Assembly (NCBI GenBank): GCA_017448685.1
Contig: JAFSKY010000106.1
Location: forward strand, 1 to 44,358
Origin: Synergistaceae bacterium
GTDB lineage: Bacteria > Synergistota > Synergistia > Synergistales > Aminobacteriaceae
Direction of reading: 5' to 3'
DNA: 44,358 nt
Positions 937 through 8,308 of the stretch are shown here, piece by piece. The position numbers were made by a program, and so were the translations under genes. Every line of letters begins with the position of its first letter. The first letter of the stretch is position 1. The notes beneath the pieces are model-generated. The model worked only from the letters and a program-made list of their open reading frames with translations. It did not search any database and was not told the DNA's origin.

Positions 937-1346
937 TTACTCACCGCTTGTTTTCTTGCGGTACATGATGATATATGCGCACAAATTTTTCACGTCAGGA
1001 TATTGTTCGAAGCCAATCATAAGACCGCATCCATTCTGGCAGTCAGTATGCTCATTCTTCCATTCGTCAAGGAAGTCCTTGAACTCTATTTTTTCGCGGA
1101 CAATGGCATCAATCTGGAAATAATGACTCTCTTCCTCATTGGCCGGAGTGCATGAGAAGGAAATCTTGTTGAAATCGTAACTGTATAGTGGCGTGTCGAG
1201 CGTAATTGTTTTGCCGTCAACCTTCTTAGCATATTGCACTGTAAGGTGGCCTTCTGACTCCTCAAAACAAATACCTGCCAACGCCTGATTAATGTAGCCT
1301 ACGCCCCTTTGCCGAAATCGAGGGTCAGCACAAATTTTGTCTCCAT
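937..1346 (-). pseudogene. Small family A/B/C member A, frameshifted near its start
   Basis: I do not recognise the family, but the product is clearly a paralogue of the proteins at 1445-1888 and 7808-8308: all share YINxxL near the N terminus, an E-x-x-x-FQID motif, a D/E-x-W-x-x-EH segment and a C-terminal I/V-x-x-YRKK-like strand. The open frame could begin at a TTG at 1353, but its first ~13 residues do not match the family. An ATG at 1346, preceded by a GGGGAAGGA-type ribosome site, reads METKFVLTLDFGKGA and then stops; that matches the N terminus of member B. One extra G in the GGGG run (1304-1307) would join this start to the downstream frame. So this is either a frameshifted gene or a base missed in a homopolymer. 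No signal peptide is seen. Confidence 0.7.
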
Positions 1347-1444
1347 GACTCAAATCCTTCCCCCTTCAAGAAATAAATTCTGCGAGGCCATCTGTAGTTG
1401 GGAAAACCGTATTGGCCTCTGTTACTGCCGAAAAGTTTCACCAG

Positions 1445-1888
1445 CTAATCATCCCCGTTTGTCTTCTTGCGGTAGAGTACAACGAATACGCATATATCTT
1501 TTGCATACAGGTTGTCCCCGAAATCAATCCTCATGCAGTCCGCGGGCTGGAGGCCGGGGTGTTCCTCCTGCCATTCATCACGCATCTTACTCGCGTCGGC
1601 CAGTTTGCGGATGCTTGCATCTATCTGGAAAAAGTAAGACTCCTCATTGCTGGACGAAGTGCAGTCCAAGTATACGTCACCGAGTTTGTAGCTGTATGAC
1701 GGCGGATTGTTGCGGACAGCCTCCTCGTAATTGCTATAATCAGCTCTTGGCAATGACACATCTAGGCGTACGCTCAAGTCCCTGAAATAAACCTTAGACA
1801 GCGGAAGCCCCGACAATGCCCGGTTGATGTAGTCAAGATTCTCTTCTTCTTCCCGGTCAAACCTGAAATCCAGCACAAAATCAGTCAT
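1445..1888 (-). CDS. Small family A/B/C member B, hypothetical
   Basis: A 147-residue protein of unknown function, paralogous to member A downstream and member C at 7808-8308. Shared signals are LDYINRALSGLPLS, the YSYKLGDVYLDCT strand, FFQIDASIR, DEWQEEHPG and the closing VVLYRKK. The pattern suggests a small alpha/beta fold. I placed the start at 1888 because the residues from there (MTDFVLDFRF) align with the reconstructed start of member A. A longer form from ATG 1948 (167 residues) is possible and has a GGGAG element at normal spacing, while the AGGAGG before 1888 is rather far. Members A and B are probably cotranscribed leftward from the promoter at 2069-2097, divergently from the first Ro60 gene. 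Confidence 0.6.
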   Translation of the reverse strand: MTDFVLDFRFDREEEENLDYINRALSGLPLSKVYFRDLSVRLDVSLPRADYSNYEEAVRNNPPSYSYKLGDVYLDCTSSSNEESYFFQIDASIRKLADASKMRDEWQEEHPGLQPADCMRIDFGDNLYAKDICVFVVLYRKKTNGDD

Positions 1889-1998
1889 AATGTTGCCGCC
1901 GCCTCCTCTCGTCAGGAAAGAAATGAAGATGCCGTGAATGTTTTTCATGGCAACTCCCGAAGGAGCGCGAAAATAATCGAGTGAATACTGTAAAGTCA

Positions 1999-2021
1999 GA
2001 TGCAGTCATGAAATCCGCATC
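1999..2021. promoter_or_regulatory. Conserved dyad, possible operator (copy 1)
   Basis: GATGC at 1999-2003 and GCATC at 2017-2021 form an interrupted palindrome. The core GCAGTCATGAAA-CCGC is almost unchanged at 5403-5420 in the second Ro60 locus, whereas sequence beyond it on the left is unrelated. It lies just downstream of the leftward promoter. The XRE-type protein encoded at 4815-5078 is the obvious candidate to bind it, which is inference. Confidence 0.35.
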
Positions 2022-2068
2022 GGCATCTGTTCCCGCCAGATTGTTGCTTTCCGGCTGAAACGCTGAGA

Positions 2069-2097
2069 ATTTTACACTCAGGTTATCCCATTGTCAT
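2069..2097 (-). promoter_or_regulatory. Leftward sigma-70-type promoter (copy 1)
   Basis: On the minus strand ATGACA (2092-2097), a 17-base spacer and TAAAAT (2069-2074). Both hexamers and the spacing recur at 5471-5499 although most of the spacer differs, which supports function. It should drive the genes at 1445-1888 and 937-1346. Confidence 0.6.
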
Positions 2098-2112
2098 TAA
2101 ACCAGAAGTTTA

Positions 2113-2141
2113 TTGCGGGCTTGCGTGTTAAGGTCTATCAT
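2113..2141 (+). promoter_or_regulatory. Rightward promoter of first Ro60 gene
   Basis: TTGCGG (2113-2118), 17 bases, TATCAT (2136-2141). The same two hexamers with the same spacing occur at 5515-5543, again with a diverged spacer. It stands back to back with the leftward promoter (35 boxes 15 bases apart). It predicts a transcript starting near 2148 with a ~200-base leader. Confidence 0.5.
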
Positions 2142-2147
2142 TCCTCA

Positions 2148-2351
2148 CGCAACATTCCCCCACAAGACACACAGAGCTGGCATCGCTGACTCAAAATAGC
2201 GTTGTCCGTTGAGACTGCCTGAAGGCCTACCTCGCCGGGCATCTTTGCGGAACCTGAAATGATAGGGATTCTACGGACGGGCATACGGGATTCTGATGAT
2301 GGGCTGCCGTTAAGGCTCTATGCGTCAAAACGGGAGGAGGTGAAAACAAGA
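2148..2351 (+). ncRNA. Conserved structured leader of first Ro60 gene (candidate Y-RNA-like)
   Basis: The ~200 bases from the predicted start site to the first Ro60 gene match the leader of the second Ro60 gene in long blocks: GAGCTGGCAT, GTTGAGACTGCCTGAAGGC, CCTGAAATGATAGGGAT, ATTCTGATGA and GCCGTTAAGG. The hairpin GCC-TGAA-GGC is identical. A helix at GCATA (2281-2285)/TATGC (2319-2323) is replaced in the other copy by CAAGA/TCTTG at the same place, a compensatory change, and encloses a small hairpin ATGG-GCTG-CCGT (2299-2310). Bacterial Ro60 genes are commonly linked to Y RNA genes, so this may be a Y RNA or a structured regulatory leader. I could not match it to a YrlA consensus from memory. 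Confidence 0.45.
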
Positions 2352-4631
2352 ATGGCACACAGAGGCAGGAAATTAGACGAACTTAACCGGCAGATGAGGA
2401 AAAAATCCCTGCTTGATGAGCGCGACGCAAGGCCTCAGAGGCACAGGGGCGGCGGAGGATGGCGGACTAGGGTCAAGACTCCCGGCGGATACTACTGGAA
2501 CTACACGGGCGAAGAACCCGCAGAACTCACCGCTGAGGCTGAAGAGATGCTCAGGCAGGCAGCTTACTGCGAGAGTTACAGCCCTGAGACGGCGGAATAT
2601 TTCAGGACTCAGGCGGAAGACCTCAAGACGGAGGCCGCTGAGCTGGTGGCATGGGAACGTGAAGACACCATCAGCCGCAGGCGCAGGAATTGGCGGGAGC
2701 GTCGCTCTCACTGGAACTGTTGGAGACACTGTTTTTTTCATCCTTTCATGCCTCCTCAGCGCAAGGCACAGCATCTTTCTTTCCCTCCGGTTCTCTGGGG
2801 ATATGATAGATACAGCAGATACTGGTATTTCAGCAATTATCGCACGGCATGGAGTCAAAGTTGGGAGTACAGTTATTTCAGGCGTTCTGTTGCTGACCGT
2901 ACGCGGGATATAAACTTCATGGGCGGAGTCTCATACAGGATGGTTACCCCACTCGACACGCTCAAGCTCATAAGCGCGGGGTCAATATTTGGCGAGCCAA
3001 TGTATTACCGTGAAGGCGACAATGAAGCCCCCGATAATTTCGACTCAATCTACGGCATAGGCTGGGAGAACGATGCCCGCATCATGTATTACGACGACAC
3101 TAGGCGCAAGAAGAAGCATTTACGGGCTGAGGATGAATACTTCCAGAGGATGGCTCTCTATTTCAGCAGGCTCACGGCCTCGCAGGTCATGGAGAAGGTC
3201 ATAGATGACTCGCTGGAGTTCGACTTTGAGGGGACGCTTAAGTGGGCTGTTGAGCTCCGCACGCGCTTCCTCATGAGGCTAAATCCGCAGGTTATCATAG
3301 TGAGGGCTTCTGTCCATAAAAACAGGCCGGACTTCACGCGCCAAAACCCGGGAAAATTCCAGGATTACGCGCAAAGAATCATGACCCGCGGCGATGATGT
3401 GATTCATCAGCTGGAATACTGGCTCTCAGTCCGTGGGTCAAAGAAGGGAATCCCTCCAGTCCTCAAACGCTCATGGGCGCGCAATATCGGCTCAATGGAT
3501 GCTTACTCGATGTCGAAATACGCTAACGCCGGGACAGGCCTCATTGACACCGTAAGAATATGCCACGCGAAAGGGCCTATCGTTGATACTCTCATGAGGA
3601 CGGGTAAAGTCCCAATGCCGGAAGGCGAAAACACATGGGAACGTCTCAGGGCTTCCGGGATGAGCTGGCAGGAAATCCTCCGCACAATCAAGATGCCTCA
3701 CATGGCTTTGCTCCGTAATCTCAGAGGAATATTCCGCGAGGTCAAGGACGAAGAAACTCTGTCAGACGCTCTCGAACTCCTCAAACGTGGCGTGAGAGGA
3801 GGAAAGCAGTTCCCGTTCCGATATTATAGGGCGTGGAAAATTTTTGAGGACGAAAAAGACTCGTGGCTCTGGGACGTGATAGAGAGAGCATTTCCGTGGC
3901 ATGATAGAGTGCAGGCTGCCCTTGAAGAATGCATCACTATATCCTGCGAGAACCTCCCGGAAATTCCCGGGCGCAGCGCGTTCCTCACCGACAATTCAGG
4001 CTCGGCTTGGGACACTCACACCTCAGAGCATGGAAGCGTGAGCATGGCCGAAATCGGCAACCTAAGCAGCGTCATCGGGGCAATCCGTTCGGAGAAAGGC
4101 ACGGTGTATGCTTTCGGCAACAAACTGAGTGCTGTACCGATAAGCCGTGAGGGGGGAGTCCTTGAGCAGGCCCGGCTCGTAAACAGCATAGGCATGGAGT
4201 GCGGTATGTCGACCGAGAGCGGATTATACGCATTCTTCAGGGACGCTGTATGTCAGAAACAGCACTGGGATAACATCTTCATATACTCTGACATGCAGAC
4301 GAGTTCGAAGCCCACATTCGGCATAAGCCCCGCGGCCTTCAAGAAAATGGGAGCATGGAGAGGAAGGGGTCGGATCGACATCAATGAAGTCGTGAGGGAA
4401 TACCGCGAGAGGGTCAACCCTTGGCTGAACGTGGTATGTGTCCAGACAGCGGGCTACACCAACGCAGTAATGCCAGAGTATGGTTATAGGTCATCAATAC
4501 TTTGCGGGTGGACTGGGAAAGAGCTTTTGTTCGCTGACGAAGTGCGCAGGTTCTGGGACGACATAGAGCAGCGCAGAGGAAGCCACTTCGAGATATTGGA
4601 CACGGAAAAAGTGAACGTCCGCGGATTCTAA
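2352..4631 (+). CDS. Ro60-like TROVE/vWA domain RNA-binding protein (Rsr family), copy 1
   Basis: Ro60 proteins are ring-shaped HEAT-repeat RNA-binding proteins that hold Y RNAs and misfolded or fragmented RNAs; in Deinococcus the homologue Rsr works with polynucleotide phosphorylase. This 759-residue protein has the TROVE pattern from residue ~188: NFMGGVSYRMVTPLDTLKLI and GSIFGEPMYYR at the start, then MPHMALLRNLR and KQFPFRYYRAW. A vWA-like domain follows with the metal-site motif DNSGS at ~547 and HWDNIFIYSDMQ. The start at 2352 has GGAGGTGA in front and aligns with the start of copy 2; an upstream in-frame codon at 2259 lies inside the conserved leader. The protein is longer than usual Rsr because of a basic ~187-residue N-terminal region. 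Residues ~112-185 are rich in Trp, Tyr, Cys and His and absent from copy 2 (see findings). Confidence 0.85.
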   Translation: MAHRGRKLDELNRQMRKKSLLDERDARPQRHRGGGGWRTRVKTPGGYYWNYTGEEPAELTAEAEEMLRQAAYCESYSPETAEYFRTQAEDLKTEAAELVAWEREDTISRRRRNWRERRSHWNCWRHCFFHPFMPPQRKAQHLSFPPVLWGYDRYSRYWYFSNYRTAWSQSWEYSYFRRSVADRTRDINFMGGVSYRMVTPLDTLKLISAGSIFGEPMYYREGDNEAPDNFDSIYGIGWENDARIMYYDDTRRKKKHLRAEDEYFQRMALYFSRLTASQVMEKVIDDSLEFDFEGTLKWAVELRTRFLMRLNPQVIIVRASVHKNRPDFTRQNPGKFQDYAQRIMTRGDDVIHQLEYWLSVRGSKKGIPPVLKRSWARNIGSMDAYSMSKYANAGTGLIDTVRICHAKGPIVDTLMRTGKVPMPEGENTWERLRASGMSWQEILRTIKMPHMALLRNLRGIFREVKDEETLSDALELLKRGVRGGKQFPFRYYRAWKIFEDEKDSWLWDVIERAFPWHDRVQAALEECITISCENLPEIPGRSAFLTDNSGSAWDTHTSEHGSVSMAEIGNLSSVIGAIRSEKGTVYAFGNKLSAVPISREGGVLEQARLVNSIGMECGMSTESGLYAFFRDAVCQKQHWDNIFIYSDMQTSSKPTFGISPAAFKKMGAWRGRGRIDINEVVREYRERVNPWLNVVCVQTAGYTNAVMPEYGYRSSILCGWTGKELLFADEVRRFWDDIEQRRGSHFEILDTEKVNVRGF

Positions 4632-4645
4632 GACGCTTGTTTGGG

Positions 4646-4685
4646 CCTGAGAGGGTGAAGGATGCCTGCTCAGGTTTTACTTTTA
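4646..4685 (+). terminator. Weak terminator-like stem after Ro60 copy 1
   Basis: CCTGAG (4646-4651) pairs with CTCAGG (4669-4674), followed by TTTTACTTTT. A similar CCTGAG/CTCAGG stem and T-rich tail sits at the end of Ro60 copy 2 (7752-7785), so it belongs to the duplicated unit. The loop is large, so termination may be partial. Confidence 0.45.
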
Positions 4686-4700
4686 CGGTGTAGAAATTTA

Positions 4701-4729
4701 TTGCGCGTTTGTTTCCTGTATGCTAAAAT
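4701..4729 (+). promoter_or_regulatory. Promoter of XRE regulator gene
   Basis: TTGCGC (4701-4706), 17-base spacer, TAAAAT (4724-4729), followed by an AT-rich ~80-base leader to the start codon at 4815. Confidence 0.55.
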
Positions 4730-4814
4730 TTGCTATTCGCTGAAAATTGGACTTCACATAAACATTACGATATCCCCAAAAATTACAACCACGTCAAAAT
4801 CAGGAGGAGCAATA

Positions 4815-5078
4815 ATGACTCTCAAGTCGACTTTTCCAGTTATTGATGTGCGTGAGACAGGACGCAGGATTGAGACCCTCCGCAAAGACTCCGGCCTCAC
4901 AGTGAGAGACCTTCAGGAATATTTCGGCTTTGAATACCCACAGGCCATATACAAATGGCAGCGCGGAGAATGCCTCCCCGCCGTGGATAACCTCCTTGCA
5001 TTGTCGCACCTTCTTGGTGTGAAGATTGAGGATCTCCTTGTGTACGAGGACAGGGAGATCTCTTGGCCTGCCGCATAG
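4815..5078 (+). CDS. XRE/Cro-CI family helix-turn-helix regulator
   Basis: An 87-residue DNA-binding protein made almost entirely of one Cro/CI-type helix-turn-helix domain. GRRIETLRKDSGLTVRDLQEYFGF and YKWQRGECLPAVDNLLALSHLLGV are the classic helices 1-5, and IEDLLVYED follows. The start is the ATG at 4815 with AGGAGG 7-8 bases before it; an open frame further upstream covers the promoter and is not used. The gene lies between the two Ro60 genes and has its own promoter. The dyads conserved in the two divergent Ro60 promoter regions (1999-2021, 5403-5422) are possible targets, by inference. No ligand or sensor domain is present. Confidence 0.85.
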   Translation: MTLKSTFPVIDVRETGRRIETLRKDSGLTVRDLQEYFGFEYPQAIYKWQRGECLPAVDNLLALSHLLGVKIEDLLVYEDREISWPAA

Positions 5079-5184
5079 CTTTTTGACGGGCTGCCCTGAG
5101 TCGAGGGTGGCCTTCAACATTTCACATTCCACGCAACAAACCTCACACGCTCAAAGCAATTCCCCATCACAATCACAGCACAAC

Positions 5185-5226
5185 AAAAAACGCCTGAACC
5201 CGGAAATGTTCCTCCAAGTTCAGACG
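5185..5226 (-). terminator. Strong leftward terminator in the gap before Ro60 copy 2
   Basis: Read on the minus strand, CGTCTGAAC (5218-5226) pairs with GTTCAGGCG (5191-5199), 8 of 9 positions, with an inner GGAA/TTCC pairing, followed by six T (5185-5190). No minus-strand protein gene ends here, so it points to an untranslated transcript from the right. Confidence 0.65.
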
Positions 5227-5402
5227 CTGGAATATACGCTCGCACCGCGAATACCATTCATGACAGGTTGGCGTATACATTTCTGCGTCCGCCGCTCCTG
5301 AATACGTCAGGCCGCCAGGTGATAACGCACTTGGAACGTTTGCAGCTGTAACCGTGCTGCCCCGGTACTCCGCGAATTTGAATGTCTGTCGATATAATAG
5401 AT

Positions 5403-5422
5403 GCAGTCATGAAAACCGCTGC
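5403..5422. promoter_or_regulatory. Conserved dyad, possible operator (copy 2)
   Basis: GCAG (5403-5406) and CTGC (5419-5422) flank TCATGAAAACCG, the counterpart of the dyad at 1999-2021. A TATAAT (5393-5398) sits next to it on the plus strand, but without a good 35 box. Confidence 0.3.
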
Positions 5423-5470
5423 GATGCTGTATTCAGAAGTCCGATTGCCTTTCCCCTGAACACGTGAGAA

Positions 5471-5499
5471 ATTTTACCAGCCACATAACGTATTGTCAT
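5471..5499 (-). promoter_or_regulatory. Leftward sigma-70-type promoter (copy 2)
   Basis: On the minus strand ATGACA (5494-5499), 17 bases, TAAAAT (5471-5476). It is identical in hexamers and spacing to 2069-2097, and reads into the candidate small RNA. Confidence 0.6.
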
Positions 5500-5514
5500 T
5501 AAACCTACAGTTTA

Positions 5515-5543
5515 TTGCGGGCATATCTCGTTAAGGCTATCAT
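5515..5543 (+). promoter_or_regulatory. Rightward promoter of second Ro60 gene
   Basis: TTGCGG (5515-5520), 17 bases, TATCAT (5538-5543), matching 2113-2141. The predicted transcript starts near 5550. The TATCAT could alternatively pair with ATGATAG downstream as part of an RNA stem, so the promoter reading is not certain. Confidence 0.5.
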
Positions 5544-5549
5544 ATTCCA

Positions 5550-5736
5550 CAGATGCATGGAGCTGGCATTACTGGCACGGAAAAGCATTGAGCGTTGAGA
5601 CTGCCTGAAGGCCATACCTCGCCGGGGGTCTTTACGAAGCCTGAAATGATAGGGATATTCGGACGCGCAAGAGCAATTCTGATGACGGAATGCCGTTAAG
5701 GTTTCTTGTGTCAAACAGGAAGCGAGGTGAAAGAAA
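5550..5736 (+). ncRNA. Conserved structured leader of second Ro60 gene (candidate Y-RNA-like)
   Basis: This is the counterpart of 2148-2351. The distal helix here is CGCAAGA (5666-5672) with TCTTGTG (5704-5710), 7 pairs with one G-U, enclosing the hairpin ACGG-AATG-CCGT (5685-5696). In copy 1 the helix sequence is different but still pairs. The GCC-TGAA-GGC hairpin is unchanged. The leader runs straight into the ribosome site GCGAGGTGA of Ro60 copy 2, so it may act as a leader, be processed out as a separate RNA, or both. Confidence 0.45.
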
Positions 5737-7767
5737 TTGACATACCAAGGCAGAAAATGCATAGAAATGGCACGGCTCATGAGGAAGAAATCTGTACCCG
5801 ATGAAGAATCCCTCGCAAAACCTCAAAGGCGCGGAACAAGCAAATCAGCAAGGAAAGCCCGTTACATCAAACGCCACAGCAGGAAAATCCTTGAAGGACT
5901 CCGCATTAAGGAAGCAGCAAGCCTCCGTGAGGAAGCATCCGTGCTTCTTGAGAGGGCGAAAATCTACGAGTCATTTTATCCCGAAGAAACACAAAGGCTC
6001 ACGGAGCAGGCAAAACTCCTCAACGACATAGCAGACTGGGCAATAGAACATTACACAGGGACATGCGCCACTACAGAAACAGAATACTTCAGGTACATGG
6101 ACGAGTTCAGCGCAAAAAGCAAGACTGAATCCCATTCGTCTGACTCAGAAATGCCCGGCCATGACTCCGTGGTTAACTTCATGGGTGGAGTGTCATATAA
6201 CATTAGCCCGCTTGAAACACTGAAGATGGTCAGCGCAAGCTCAATTTTCGGTGAACCTCAGTACTACAGGCACGGAGAAGACTCAGAGGCGACAATCCTC
6301 GATGGCACATACGGACTTGACCGCCTGTTTGCTGAATACAGCCTGAGCGTTATGGATAACTTTCAGGGCAAAACAACATCTCAGATCATGGAGAAGGCTA
6401 TTGATGACGCGTTGAGCTATGATTTCGGCGGAGTCCTTGAATGGGCCGCAGGACTCCGTGATCGCTATATGATGAGGCTCAACCCTCAAATCATCATGGT
6501 GAGGGCGGCAAAACACCCTGCCCGCGAGGCATTCACGGCGGAAAATCCCGGCAAATTCGCGGAAATTTCCCAGCAAGTAATGTCGCGTGGAGATGACGTA
6601 ATCAATCAGCTTCAGTACTGGCTGCATTCAAACGGCTCAAAGCGCAAAATTCCCGCAATCCTCAAACGGTCATGGGCGAAAAATATCGGCTCAATGAGTG
6701 CTTACTCCATGTCGAAATACTGCCACGCCGGAATAGGTCTCGTTGATGCTGTGAGAATCTGCCACGCAAAAGGAAGCCTCGTTGATACACTCATGCGCGA
6801 GGGAAGAGTCCCAATGCCTGAAGGCCAAGACACATGGGAGCGTCTACGTTCAACGGGAAAAAGCTGGGAGGAAATCATCAGGACTATACGTATTCCGCAC
6901 ATGGCCTTGTTGCGTAACCTTCGCGGAATATTCTCAGAAGTCAGCGATGAAAATATCCTGAATGACGTTCTCGAATCTCTCAAGGCAGGAGTCCCCAATG
7001 GTAAGCAATTCCCGTTTAGATATTTCTCTGCGTGGAGAATAATTAGACGGTTAGAAGCCCCTTGGGTTGAGCGTGTGAAGTCTGCGCTTGAAGAATGCAT
7101 GAATATATCCTGCGGGAATTTGCCGAAAATGCCGGGACGTTGTGCGTTTTTGTCGGATAATTCCGGGTCTGCGCTGAACACACACGTATCTGAATACGGC
7201 TCAATGAATGTTGCTGCAATCGGGAATCTTAGTGCTGTTATTGGTGCAATGAGTTCGCATGAAGGAGTCGTTTTCCCATTTGGCGATATGCTCTTAACGT
7301 TCAACATCAGCAAAGACACCGGGATTCTTGAACAGTTGAACAACGTCAACGGAAACGGAAGATATTGCGGCACAGCAACTGAAAACGGAGTGTGGCTGTT
7401 CTTTGACGAGGCAATTCACAAAAAACAGCACTGGGATAACATATTCATATACTCAGACATGCAGGCCGGGCATGGAGGCTTATACGGCATGAATCCTGAA
7501 GGCTACAGGGCTTTGGGATGCTGCATTGAGGGCGGTTGTTATCCGTATATTGACGTGAACAAGCTGGTGAAGATTTACCGCGAGAGGGTCAACCCAAAAG
7601 TCAACGTTTACTGCATACAGACAGCCGGATATACGAATGTTCTTGTGCCTGAATACGGTTACAGGACTGCTATACTTTATGGCTGGACGGGTAAAGAGCT
7701 GATTTTTGCGGATGCTCTGAGGCGGATATGGGATAAGATTGAAAGCGCGAGACCTGAGTGTAATTAG
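5737..7767 (+). CDS. Ro60-like TROVE/vWA domain RNA-binding protein (Rsr family), copy 2
   Basis: A 676-residue paralogue of the protein at 2352-4631, closely similar over the whole TROVE (from ~147) and vWA-like (from ~470) parts. NFMGGVSYNISPLETLKMV, GSKRKIPAILKRSWAKNIGS, IPHMALLRNLRGIF and KQFPFRYFSAW mark the TROVE ring; DNSGS at ~474 is the metal-site motif and HWDNIFIYSDMQAG follows. The start is a TTG at 5737 behind GAGGTGAAAG, aligned with the ATG of copy 1 (both followed by x-x-x-GRK and MRKKS). The N-terminal region is basic and partly helical, shorter than in copy 1 and without the Trp/Tyr-rich insert. Having two Ro60 genes in one locus suggests subfunctionalisation, for example different RNA partners. 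Expected to act in the cytoplasm. Member C of the small family follows after 40 bases. Confidence 0.87.
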   Translation: MTYQGRKCIEMARLMRKKSVPDEESLAKPQRRGTSKSARKARYIKRHSRKILEGLRIKEAASLREEASVLLERAKIYESFYPEETQRLTEQAKLLNDIADWAIEHYTGTCATTETEYFRYMDEFSAKSKTESHSSDSEMPGHDSVVNFMGGVSYNISPLETLKMVSASSIFGEPQYYRHGEDSEATILDGTYGLDRLFAEYSLSVMDNFQGKTTSQIMEKAIDDALSYDFGGVLEWAAGLRDRYMMRLNPQIIMVRAAKHPAREAFTAENPGKFAEISQQVMSRGDDVINQLQYWLHSNGSKRKIPAILKRSWAKNIGSMSAYSMSKYCHAGIGLVDAVRICHAKGSLVDTLMREGRVPMPEGQDTWERLRSTGKSWEEIIRTIRIPHMALLRNLRGIFSEVSDENILNDVLESLKAGVPNGKQFPFRYFSAWRIIRRLEAPWVERVKSALEECMNISCGNLPKMPGRCAFLSDNSGSALNTHVSEYGSMNVAAIGNLSAVIGAMSSHEGVVFPFGDMLLTFNISKDTGILEQLNNVNGNGRYCGTATENGVWLFFDEAIHKKQHWDNIFIYSDMQAGHGGLYGMNPEGYRALGCCIEGGCYPYIDVNKLVKIYRERVNPKVNVYCIQTAGYTNVLVPEYGYRTAILYGWTGKELIFADALRRIWDKIESARPECN

Positions 7768-7785
7768 GCCGCTCAGGTTTCTTTG
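7752..7785 (+). terminator. Terminator-like stem at the end of Ro60 copy 2
   Basis: ACCTGAG (7752-7758) pairs with CTCAGGT (7772-7778) across the stop codon, followed by TTCTTT. It recalls the stem at 4646-4674. The T tract is broken, so it may reduce rather than stop transcription into 7808-8308. Confidence 0.4.
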
Positions 7786-7807
7786 CTTCAAGATTGGAGG
7801 AAGTAAT

Positions 7808-8308
7808 ATGTTCGTCAAATATTCTGCGTTATTCGTGCTTCTCGTAGTGATGCTACTTATGTCGGTTGTTACCTGTCATGCTGCCCCCAACACTTTCAGC
7901 TTGATGTTCAGCTTCCCGGAACGCGATGAAACAGACATTGCCAGAATCAATGAGGTACTTTCACGGCTTCCACTGAGTAGCCTTAACATTGACACTTCCA
8001 GCGGGGAGATTGATGGCTATATTTGCACGACGAAACATTACGATAAAGACGAAAAATTGACCGGGACGACATACCGTTATGGTTTCGACAGCCTGATTCT
8101 TGAATGCGAAATGAACAATGACGGGGATATGAACATCTACCAGATTGACACTAAAGCATACTCGCGTTCAGAGATGAAAGACTCTAAGATGTTCCGGGAA
8201 TTATGGCTGAAAGAACACCCCGGGCGTGTCATGCGCGTAATGATGGAGATAGAGTTCAATAGCAGCAACGCCGCGGGGTTCATCGTGTTGCATCATGAGA
8301 AAAAGTGA
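7808..8308 (+). CDS. Small family A/B/C member C, exported, hypothetical
   Basis: A 166-residue protein with an N-terminal signal peptide (MFVKYSALFVLLVVMLL, cleavage plausible after CHA at ~24). The mature part matches members A and B: ARINEVLSRLPLSSL, YRYGFDSLILECE, IYQIDTKAYSR, FRELWLKEHPG and a final FIVLHHEKK. Function unknown. Start chosen at ATG 7808 with TGGAGGAAG in front. It lies 40 bases behind Ro60 copy 2 and is probably cotranscribed. Members A and B show no clear signal peptide, so the family appears to have exported and cytoplasmic forms. Confidence 0.7.
   Translation: MFVKYSALFVLLVVMLLMSVVTCHAAPNTFSLMFSFPERDETDIARINEVLSRLPLSSLNIDTSSGEIDGYICTTKHYDKDEKLTGTTYRYGFDSLILECEMNNDGDMNIYQIDTKAYSRSEMKDSKMFRELWLKEHPGRVMRVMMEIEFNSSNAAGFIVLHHEKK

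What the first reader, a model, noticed from the sequence alone, without database searches (positions are those of the whole stretch)
1949..7808. A duplicated Ro60 (TROVE) ribonucleoprotein locus
Seen: two long paralogous TROVE/vWA proteins (2352-4631, 5737-7767), each with its own near-matching divergent promoter region and leader, an XRE regulator between them and three members of one unknown small family around them. Known: bacterial Ro60/Rsr is usually a single gene linked to Y RNA genes, PNPase or RtcB/RtcA. Inferred: whole-module duplication with divergence, perhaps one Ro60 per RNA partner. No rtcA/rtcB or pnp is present here.
Basis: partly seen in the sequence, partly recalled or inferred. 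Interest (0 to 1): 0.88.

Follow-up and report, generated by a model that had tools for sequence, protein, structure and literature searches.

The report
Two Ro60 genes, each with Y RNA
A gut bacterium carries two copies of the ring-shaped RNA-quality-control protein Ro60, and each copy is paired with its own previously unannotated small partner RNA (a Y RNA) made from a shared two-way promoter, a set-up related to one found in giant phages.

Summary
In detail: 2352-4631 and 5737-7767 encode two Ro60/TROVE-vWA proteins (53% identical), with an XRE gene between them and three relatives of one unknown small family around them. Each gene is preceded by a divergently transcribed, structured small RNA on the minus strand (1925-2031 and 5238-5432). 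A covariance model built from 20 such RNAs finds only these two places in the genome. Across 101 genomes the RNA occurs only where this Ro60 occurs. RNA and Ro60 mRNA start from one bidirectional promoter over a near-palindromic operator (GTCATTAAAC-N5-GTTTAWTG), found in 11 genomes only beside this module; the XRE protein is the likely binder. The RNA is homologous to Y RNA arrays beside Ro60 in large phages: there 15 of 16 pairs show compensatory changes, and the phage-trained model recovers the RNA in a genus relative (E 2e-6). The bacterial Ro60 clade (three phyla) falls among phage Ro60s. The two copies belong to old, separate lineages, not a recent duplication, and the A lineage keeps its own RNA type. 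New variant of a known kind (Ro60-Y RNA RNP). Binding and function are untested.

The parts
2352..4631 (+). Ro60 (TROVE-vWA) copy A, 759 aa, with a long variable N-terminal extension
   Evidence: PF05731 23.3 bits; PHROG 850 5e-32; 53% identical to B; A-type clade of 5 genomes
5737..7767 (+). Ro60 (TROVE-vWA) copy B, 676 aa, TTG start, DNSGS MIDAS motif
   Evidence: PF05731 31.2 bits; fold matches only Ro60 structures at E<=0.001; B-type clade
1925..2031 (-). Y-like RNA A, conserved core (transcript probably starts near 2062 and runs on into the small gene at 1888)
   Evidence: model R1 89.4 bits; phage-trained model R2 ranks it first in the locus, 14.9 bits, E 0.015; fold z -3.3
5238..5432 (-). 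Y-like RNA B, conserved core
   Evidence: model R1 123.1 bits; covariation in A5
5189..5228 (-). intrinsic terminator of RNA B (stem, then T run at 5188 downward)
   Evidence: 18 pairs, 7 GC; equivalent stems downstream of the RNA in many relatives
2069..2097 (-). promoter of RNA A: ATGACA-17-TAAAAT
5471..5499 (-). promoter of RNA B: ATGACA-17-TAAAAT
2093..2115 (.). operator A, near-palindrome GTCATTAAAC-N5-GTTTATTG overlapping both -35 boxes
   Evidence: only two sites in this genome, none in three relatives without the locus
5495..5517 (.). operator B
2113..2141 (+). promoter of Ro60 A: TTGCGG-17-TATCAT
5515..5543 (+). promoter of Ro60 B: TTGCGG-17-TATCAT
2253..2268 (+). conserved 5' UTR element CCTGAAATGATAGGGA before Ro60 A (function unknown)
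   Evidence: no covariation
5640..5655 (+). the same 5' UTR element before Ro60 B
4815..5078 (+). XRE-family regulator, candidate binder of the operator
   Evidence: HTH_3; 66-83% identical homologue next to the module in 10 other genomes
1448..1888 (-). small unknown gene s2, downstream of RNA A; ATG at 1888 is the likelier start because the listed start at 1948 lies inside the RNA
940..1353 (-). small unknown gene s1, same family as s2
7808..8308 (+). small unknown gene s3, same family, N-terminus looks like a signal peptide

Best explanation
The locus encodes two Ro60-Y RNA ribonucleoprotein modules. Each consists of a Ro60 gene and, transcribed away from it, its own Y RNA. Shown computationally: the proteins are Ro60 by sequence and fold. 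The RNA is a conserved structured transcript with an outer stem, an AGCGG/AUAUUC internal loop, an inner stem, a UGCAUC motif and a variable apical module. It has its own promoter, and RNA B has a terminator. It is homologous to Y RNA arrays beside phage Ro60 genes. Inferred: the paired stem region binds the outer face of the Ro60 ring and the variable part recruits or excludes partner RNAs or enzymes, as for other Y RNAs. The XRE protein binds the operator over both -35 boxes, most simply as a repressor, so that protein and RNA are induced together. Each Ro60 works mainly with the Y RNA made next to it (least certain step). The module descends from a large-phage Ro60 and spread among gut bacteria of three phyla.
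For: Protein. RNA: 20 bacterial RNAs, 93.1% of cells paired, 27 double changes against 10.3 in shuffles (0/500); fold z-scores -1.8 to -4.3; strand fixed by promoter and terminator and by wobble pairs, 27 G.U on the minus strand against 7 if read on the plus strand (p 0.0008). Linkage: R1 finds the RNA in 8 of 101 genomes, all among the 10 with Ro60, with equal copy numbers in G000 2/2, G003 3/3 and G030 2/2. Homology to phage Y RNAs: R1's only 6 weak hits in 1.2 Mb all lie just upstream of phage Ro60. The phage family has 15 of 16 pairs with double changes, 110 cells against 32. R2 gives 117 hits at E<=0.01 in 64 phage loci, all on the Ro60 strand, and finds the RNA of genus relative L033 (E 2e-6) and of L037 (E 8e-8). 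Regulation: bidirectional promoter and locus-specific operator, with one further operator before the XRE gene in G028. Origin: bacterial clade 100/100 among phage Ro60s. Pairing: A-type proteins 5/5 with the short CUCC..GGAG RNA, 0/15 of the other RNAs.
Against: No expression or binding data. The Pfam match covers only part of TROVE, and the AlphaFold model is of middling quality. R2 sees the window's RNA A only weakly (E 0.015 in 7.5 kb) and gives no convincing match to RNA B; the link rests on L033, L037 and position. RNA A has no terminator and runs into a protein gene, so it could also act as that gene's leader. tRNA-like modules, reported for at least one Y RNA per species, were not seen in the window's RNAs with a crude motif test. 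The RNA-protein pairing is one clade-level association, not repeated independent events. The XRE-operator link is by linkage only.
Confidence: 0.75

Rival explanations
1. The RNAs and operator act mainly as cis-regulation of the Ro60 and small genes (leader or antisense-type RNA), and are not Ro60 ligands.
For: RNA A has no terminator and leads into gene s2; a separate conserved 5' UTR element precedes most Ro60 genes.
Against: RNA B and many relatives end in a terminator, not a gene; homologous RNAs stand as arrays beside phage Ro60 in another strand arrangement; two tandem copies in L005 and L009.
Confidence: 0.13
2. The RNAs are Y RNAs but shared: the two Ro60 proteins are redundant or divided by expression, and either RNA serves either protein.
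For: The conserved core (CAUGACUGCAUC) is the same in both RNAs; both promoters carry the same operator.
Against: A-type proteins go with A-type RNAs in 5 of 5 genomes; copy numbers match one to one. These fit shared use too, since neighbours are inherited together.
Confidence: 0.4
3. The module is an anti-phage or anti-plasmid device: Ro60 captured from phages and put under an XRE repressor that is lifted during infection.
For: Phage relatedness, patchy distribution (1 of 250 genomes of one family; 8 of 101 genomes), XRE control.
Against: No effector enzyme; a conserved chromosomal neighbourhood in sister genomes. The defence-library scan failed on a coordinate error and was not repeated.
Confidence: 0.1

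Closest known systems
Bacterial Ro60/Rsr with Y RNA (Deinococcus radiodurans rsr; RYPER with PNPase)
   Same: Ro60 fold (2nvo among the hits), Y RNA gene next to the Ro60 gene, stem plus variable module
   Different: Two paralogs, divergent RNA genes from a bidirectional promoter with an XRE-type operator, RNA sequence outside known Rfam families
Salmonella rsr-yrlBA-rtcBA operon (PMC7790460)
   Same: Ro60 with linked Y RNAs under a dedicated regulator
   Different: No rtcBA at the locus, XRE instead of the RtcR/sigma54 activator, RNA divergent from rather than in line with Ro60
Ro60 of large phages (Bacillus phage G gp540; Thermus phage phiLo, PDB 9l5y)
   Same: Closest relatives in sequence (phage G 51%) and fold (9l5y); homologous Y RNA arrays
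   Different: Phage RNAs lie on the Ro60 strand, often as arrays; phage G gp540 lacks the long N-terminal extension, and the operator is not found there
YrlA (tRNA-mimic Y RNA)
   Same: Y RNA class, linked to Ro60
   Different: No Rfam match; no clear tRNA-like module in the window's RNAs

Membership tests
Ro60 / TROVE protein | TROVE domain by profile HMM | tested here: met
   Above the curated cut-off in both, C-terminal part only; longer match to PHROG 850
Ro60 / TROVE protein | HEAT-repeat ring closed by a vWA domain | tested here: met
   Foldseek: 13 PDB matches at E<=0.001, all Ro60 or TROVE; model pLDDT 66.7, copy B only
Ro60 / TROVE protein | MIDAS DxSxS in the vWA domain | tested here: met
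   D474, S476 and S478 invariant in 12 homologues, DNSGS in both window copies
Ro60 / TROVE protein | Binds Y RNA and 3' ends of misfolded RNA | not testable with these tools
   needs biochemistry
Bacterial/phage Y RNA | Encoded next to Ro60 | tested here: met
Bacterial/phage Y RNA | Two-stem structure with conserved internal loop and variable apical part | tested here: met
Bacterial/phage Y RNA | tRNA-like domain in at least one Y RNA of a species | tested here: inconclusive
   GTTCRA motif in 13 of 81 phage RNAs, in 1 of 20 bacterial RNAs and in neither window RNA; ARAGORN found no tRNA here
Bacterial/phage Y RNA | Bound and stabilised by Ro60 | not testable with these tools
   needs pull-down or a deletion strain
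rsr-rtcBA RNA repair operon | rtcB/rtcA linked to Ro60 | tested here: not met
   RtcB of this genome lies on another contig
RYPER (Ro60-Y RNA-PNPase) | Y RNA tethers PNPase | not testable with these tools
   no assay; PNPase not searched
Rfam Y RNA / YrlA | Match to the Rfam model | tested here: not met

The most novel reading that the evidence does not exclude
A bacterium runs two or three parallel, insulated Ro60 RNPs in one cell. Each Ro60 lineage has co-evolved with its own Y RNA lineage, was domesticated from large phages and is switched on as a protein-RNA pair by one dedicated XRE regulator.
Probability: 0.3. Interest if true: 0.75.

Novelty: new variant of a known kind. Interest (0 to 1): 0.58.

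Why it matters
The role of bacterial Y RNAs, and why some cells have more than one Ro60, are open questions. Here is a natural two- and three-copy system with matched RNAs, a dedicated operator and close relatives with one copy, so specificity (which RNA goes with which ring) can be tested directly. It also gives a covariance-supported RNA family, absent from Rfam 15, that links bacterial and large-phage Ro60 and lets unannotated Y RNAs be found, for instance about five in the gap before gp540 of Bacillus phage G.

Tried and rejected
Plus-strand RNA: first assumed because the conserved blocks lie upstream of Ro60; rejected by promoters, terminators and wobble-pair counts. Known Rfam family: rejected. 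The 5' UTR element as a second structured RNA: 15 predicted pairs, none with a compensatory change, so no support; model R1 does not see it either. Exact E1 motif in viral contigs: none, because phages keep the structure and loop motifs but not that sequence. Listeria phage P100, fetched because PMC12282133 reports abundant RNAs near an Rsr-like gene in a relative, was not analysed further. The key Y RNA papers (Chen 2014; Sim 2018, 2020) are not in the library, so overlap of the phage RNAs with that earlier survey could not be checked.

Full report
OBSERVATION. The two ORFs are as described. Both pass the TROVE cut-off, but only over the C-terminal part of the domain. A profile of 16 homologues matches the solved TROVE proteins 9kop and 9l5y at 2e-15. 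The AlphaFold2 model of copy B (pLDDT 66.7) finds 13 PDB matches at E<=0.001, all Ro60 or TROVE: Thermus phage phiLo Ro60, animal Ro60 and Deinococcus Rsr. The MIDAS residues are invariant. So these are divergent but genuine Ro60 proteins.

WHAT THE LEADERS ARE. The two upstream regions align, and short blocks in them recur before Ro60 genes in Synergistota, Bacillota and Actinomycetota. Two of the blocks, GATGCAGTCATGAAAACCGCTGCG and CGAATATCATTCATGAC, are the two strands of one RNA read on the minus strand. On that strand the order is promoter ATGACA-17-TAAAAT, then the RNA, then an intrinsic terminator at 5228-5189 for copy B. In an alignment of 20 RNAs, 93.1% of cells of the two stems are paired, with 27 double changes against 10.3 in shuffles, 0 of 500 reaching it. 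Wobble pairs fix the strand: 27 G.U on the minus strand against 7 if it were the plus strand, p 0.0008. A covariance model (R1) finds exactly two in this genome: 1925-2031 and 5238-5432.

LINKAGE. Among 101 genomes (the window's own and 100 relatives) the Ro60 occurs in 10 and the RNA in 8, all among those 10. Copy numbers agree at two, three and two in G000, G003 and G030. The two Ro60 genomes without an R1 hit are G082, with a distant TROVE protein, and G052, which carries a phage-type version on the minus strand just downstream of its Ro60 (L037 2611-2711, 38.5 bits with R2; fold -43.4 kcal/mol). In G001 the RNA stands before a TnpB-like transposase gene where a further Ro60 copy would be expected.

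PHAGE RELATIVES. The protein is 51% identical to Bacillus phage G gp540, and 119 IMG/VR stretches encode relatives. R1's only six hits in 1.2 Mb, all weak, lie just upstream of phage Ro60 genes on their strand. There a short motif, GAAGCGG-N9-TTACTTC, recurs: 92 hits upstream on the Ro60 strand against 1 on the other. When RNAs are picked by motif alone, the inner stem pairs in 78.6% of cells against 53.3% shuffled, and the outer stem in 86% against 63.7%. In a 28-sequence alignment 15 of 16 pairs show double changes, 110 cells against 32.4. Model R2 from these gives 117 hits at E<=0.01 in 59 of 64 phage loci, all on the Ro60 strand (the 28 training sequences match by construction). In reverse, R2 finds the RNA of the genus relative L033 at E 2e-6 and ranks window RNA A first in the locus, weakly, E 0.015. 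Conserved in both groups: outer stem, AGCGG/AUAUUC loop, inner stem, then UACWUC or UGCAUC.

REGULATION. RNA and Ro60 promoters face away from each other and share the operator GTCATTAAAC-N5-GTTTAWTG; each -35 box overlaps one arm. In 15 genomes searched it occurs in 11, always beside the RNA or the XRE gene, never in three relatives lacking the module, and never as the reversed control. In G028 a further site precedes the XRE gene. An XRE homologue 66-83% identical accompanies the module in ten other genomes. A repressor is the simplest reading; this is inference.

ORIGIN AND COPIES. The bacterial clade is 100/100 supported and lies among phage Ro60s (midpoint root). Copy A sits in a five-genome A clade and copy B in a four-genome B clade, so the two types predate the species. 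One clade of all Synergistota copies is not rejected (p-AU 0.218). All five A-type proteins go with the short CUCC..GGAG RNA and none of the other 15 RNAs has it. This fits cognate pairs, but also simple joint inheritance.

WHAT IS KNOWN. Y RNAs beside Ro60 in bacteria and phages are an established class. Chen et al. 2014, from memory and as cited in PMC12282133 and PMC4726728, surveyed them widely, and some phage RNAs found here may be among theirs. New as far as I could test: absence from Rfam 15, the divergent bidirectional arrangement with a dedicated operator, one RNA per paralog, and the phage-to-bacterium link. Ligand binding and biological role remain untested.

Noticed in passing
L173 1885-2943 (Bacillus phage G, between gp539 and gp540): Unannotated gap holding about five Y-like RNAs in tandem just before the Ro60 gene.
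   Followed up: partly
L005 5074-5413 and L009 5124-5470: Two tandem Y-like RNAs before a single Ro60 gene in Bacillota, behind one promoter.
   Followed up: partly
window 2253-2268 and 5640-5655: Highly conserved 5' UTR element CCTGAAATGATAGGGA, kept in most but not all relatives, without covariation support; possible regulatory leader.
   Followed up: partly
L034 3447-4595: TnpB-like transposase gene directly after an orphan RNA and operator, where another Ro60 copy would be expected.
   Followed up: no
window 940-1353, 1448-1888, 7808-8308: Small protein family without any Pfam, PHROGs or NCBIfam match; s2 lies directly downstream of RNA A, s3 has a signal-peptide-like start.
   Followed up: partly
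L041 1233-1496: Second copy of the RNA and a perfectly palindromic operator on another contig of the Coriobacteriaceae genome.
   Followed up: no
L172 6570-6642 and 7218-7293: R2 hits on a Pseudomonas sp. FeN3W megaplasmid downstream of its Ro60 gene.
   Followed up: no
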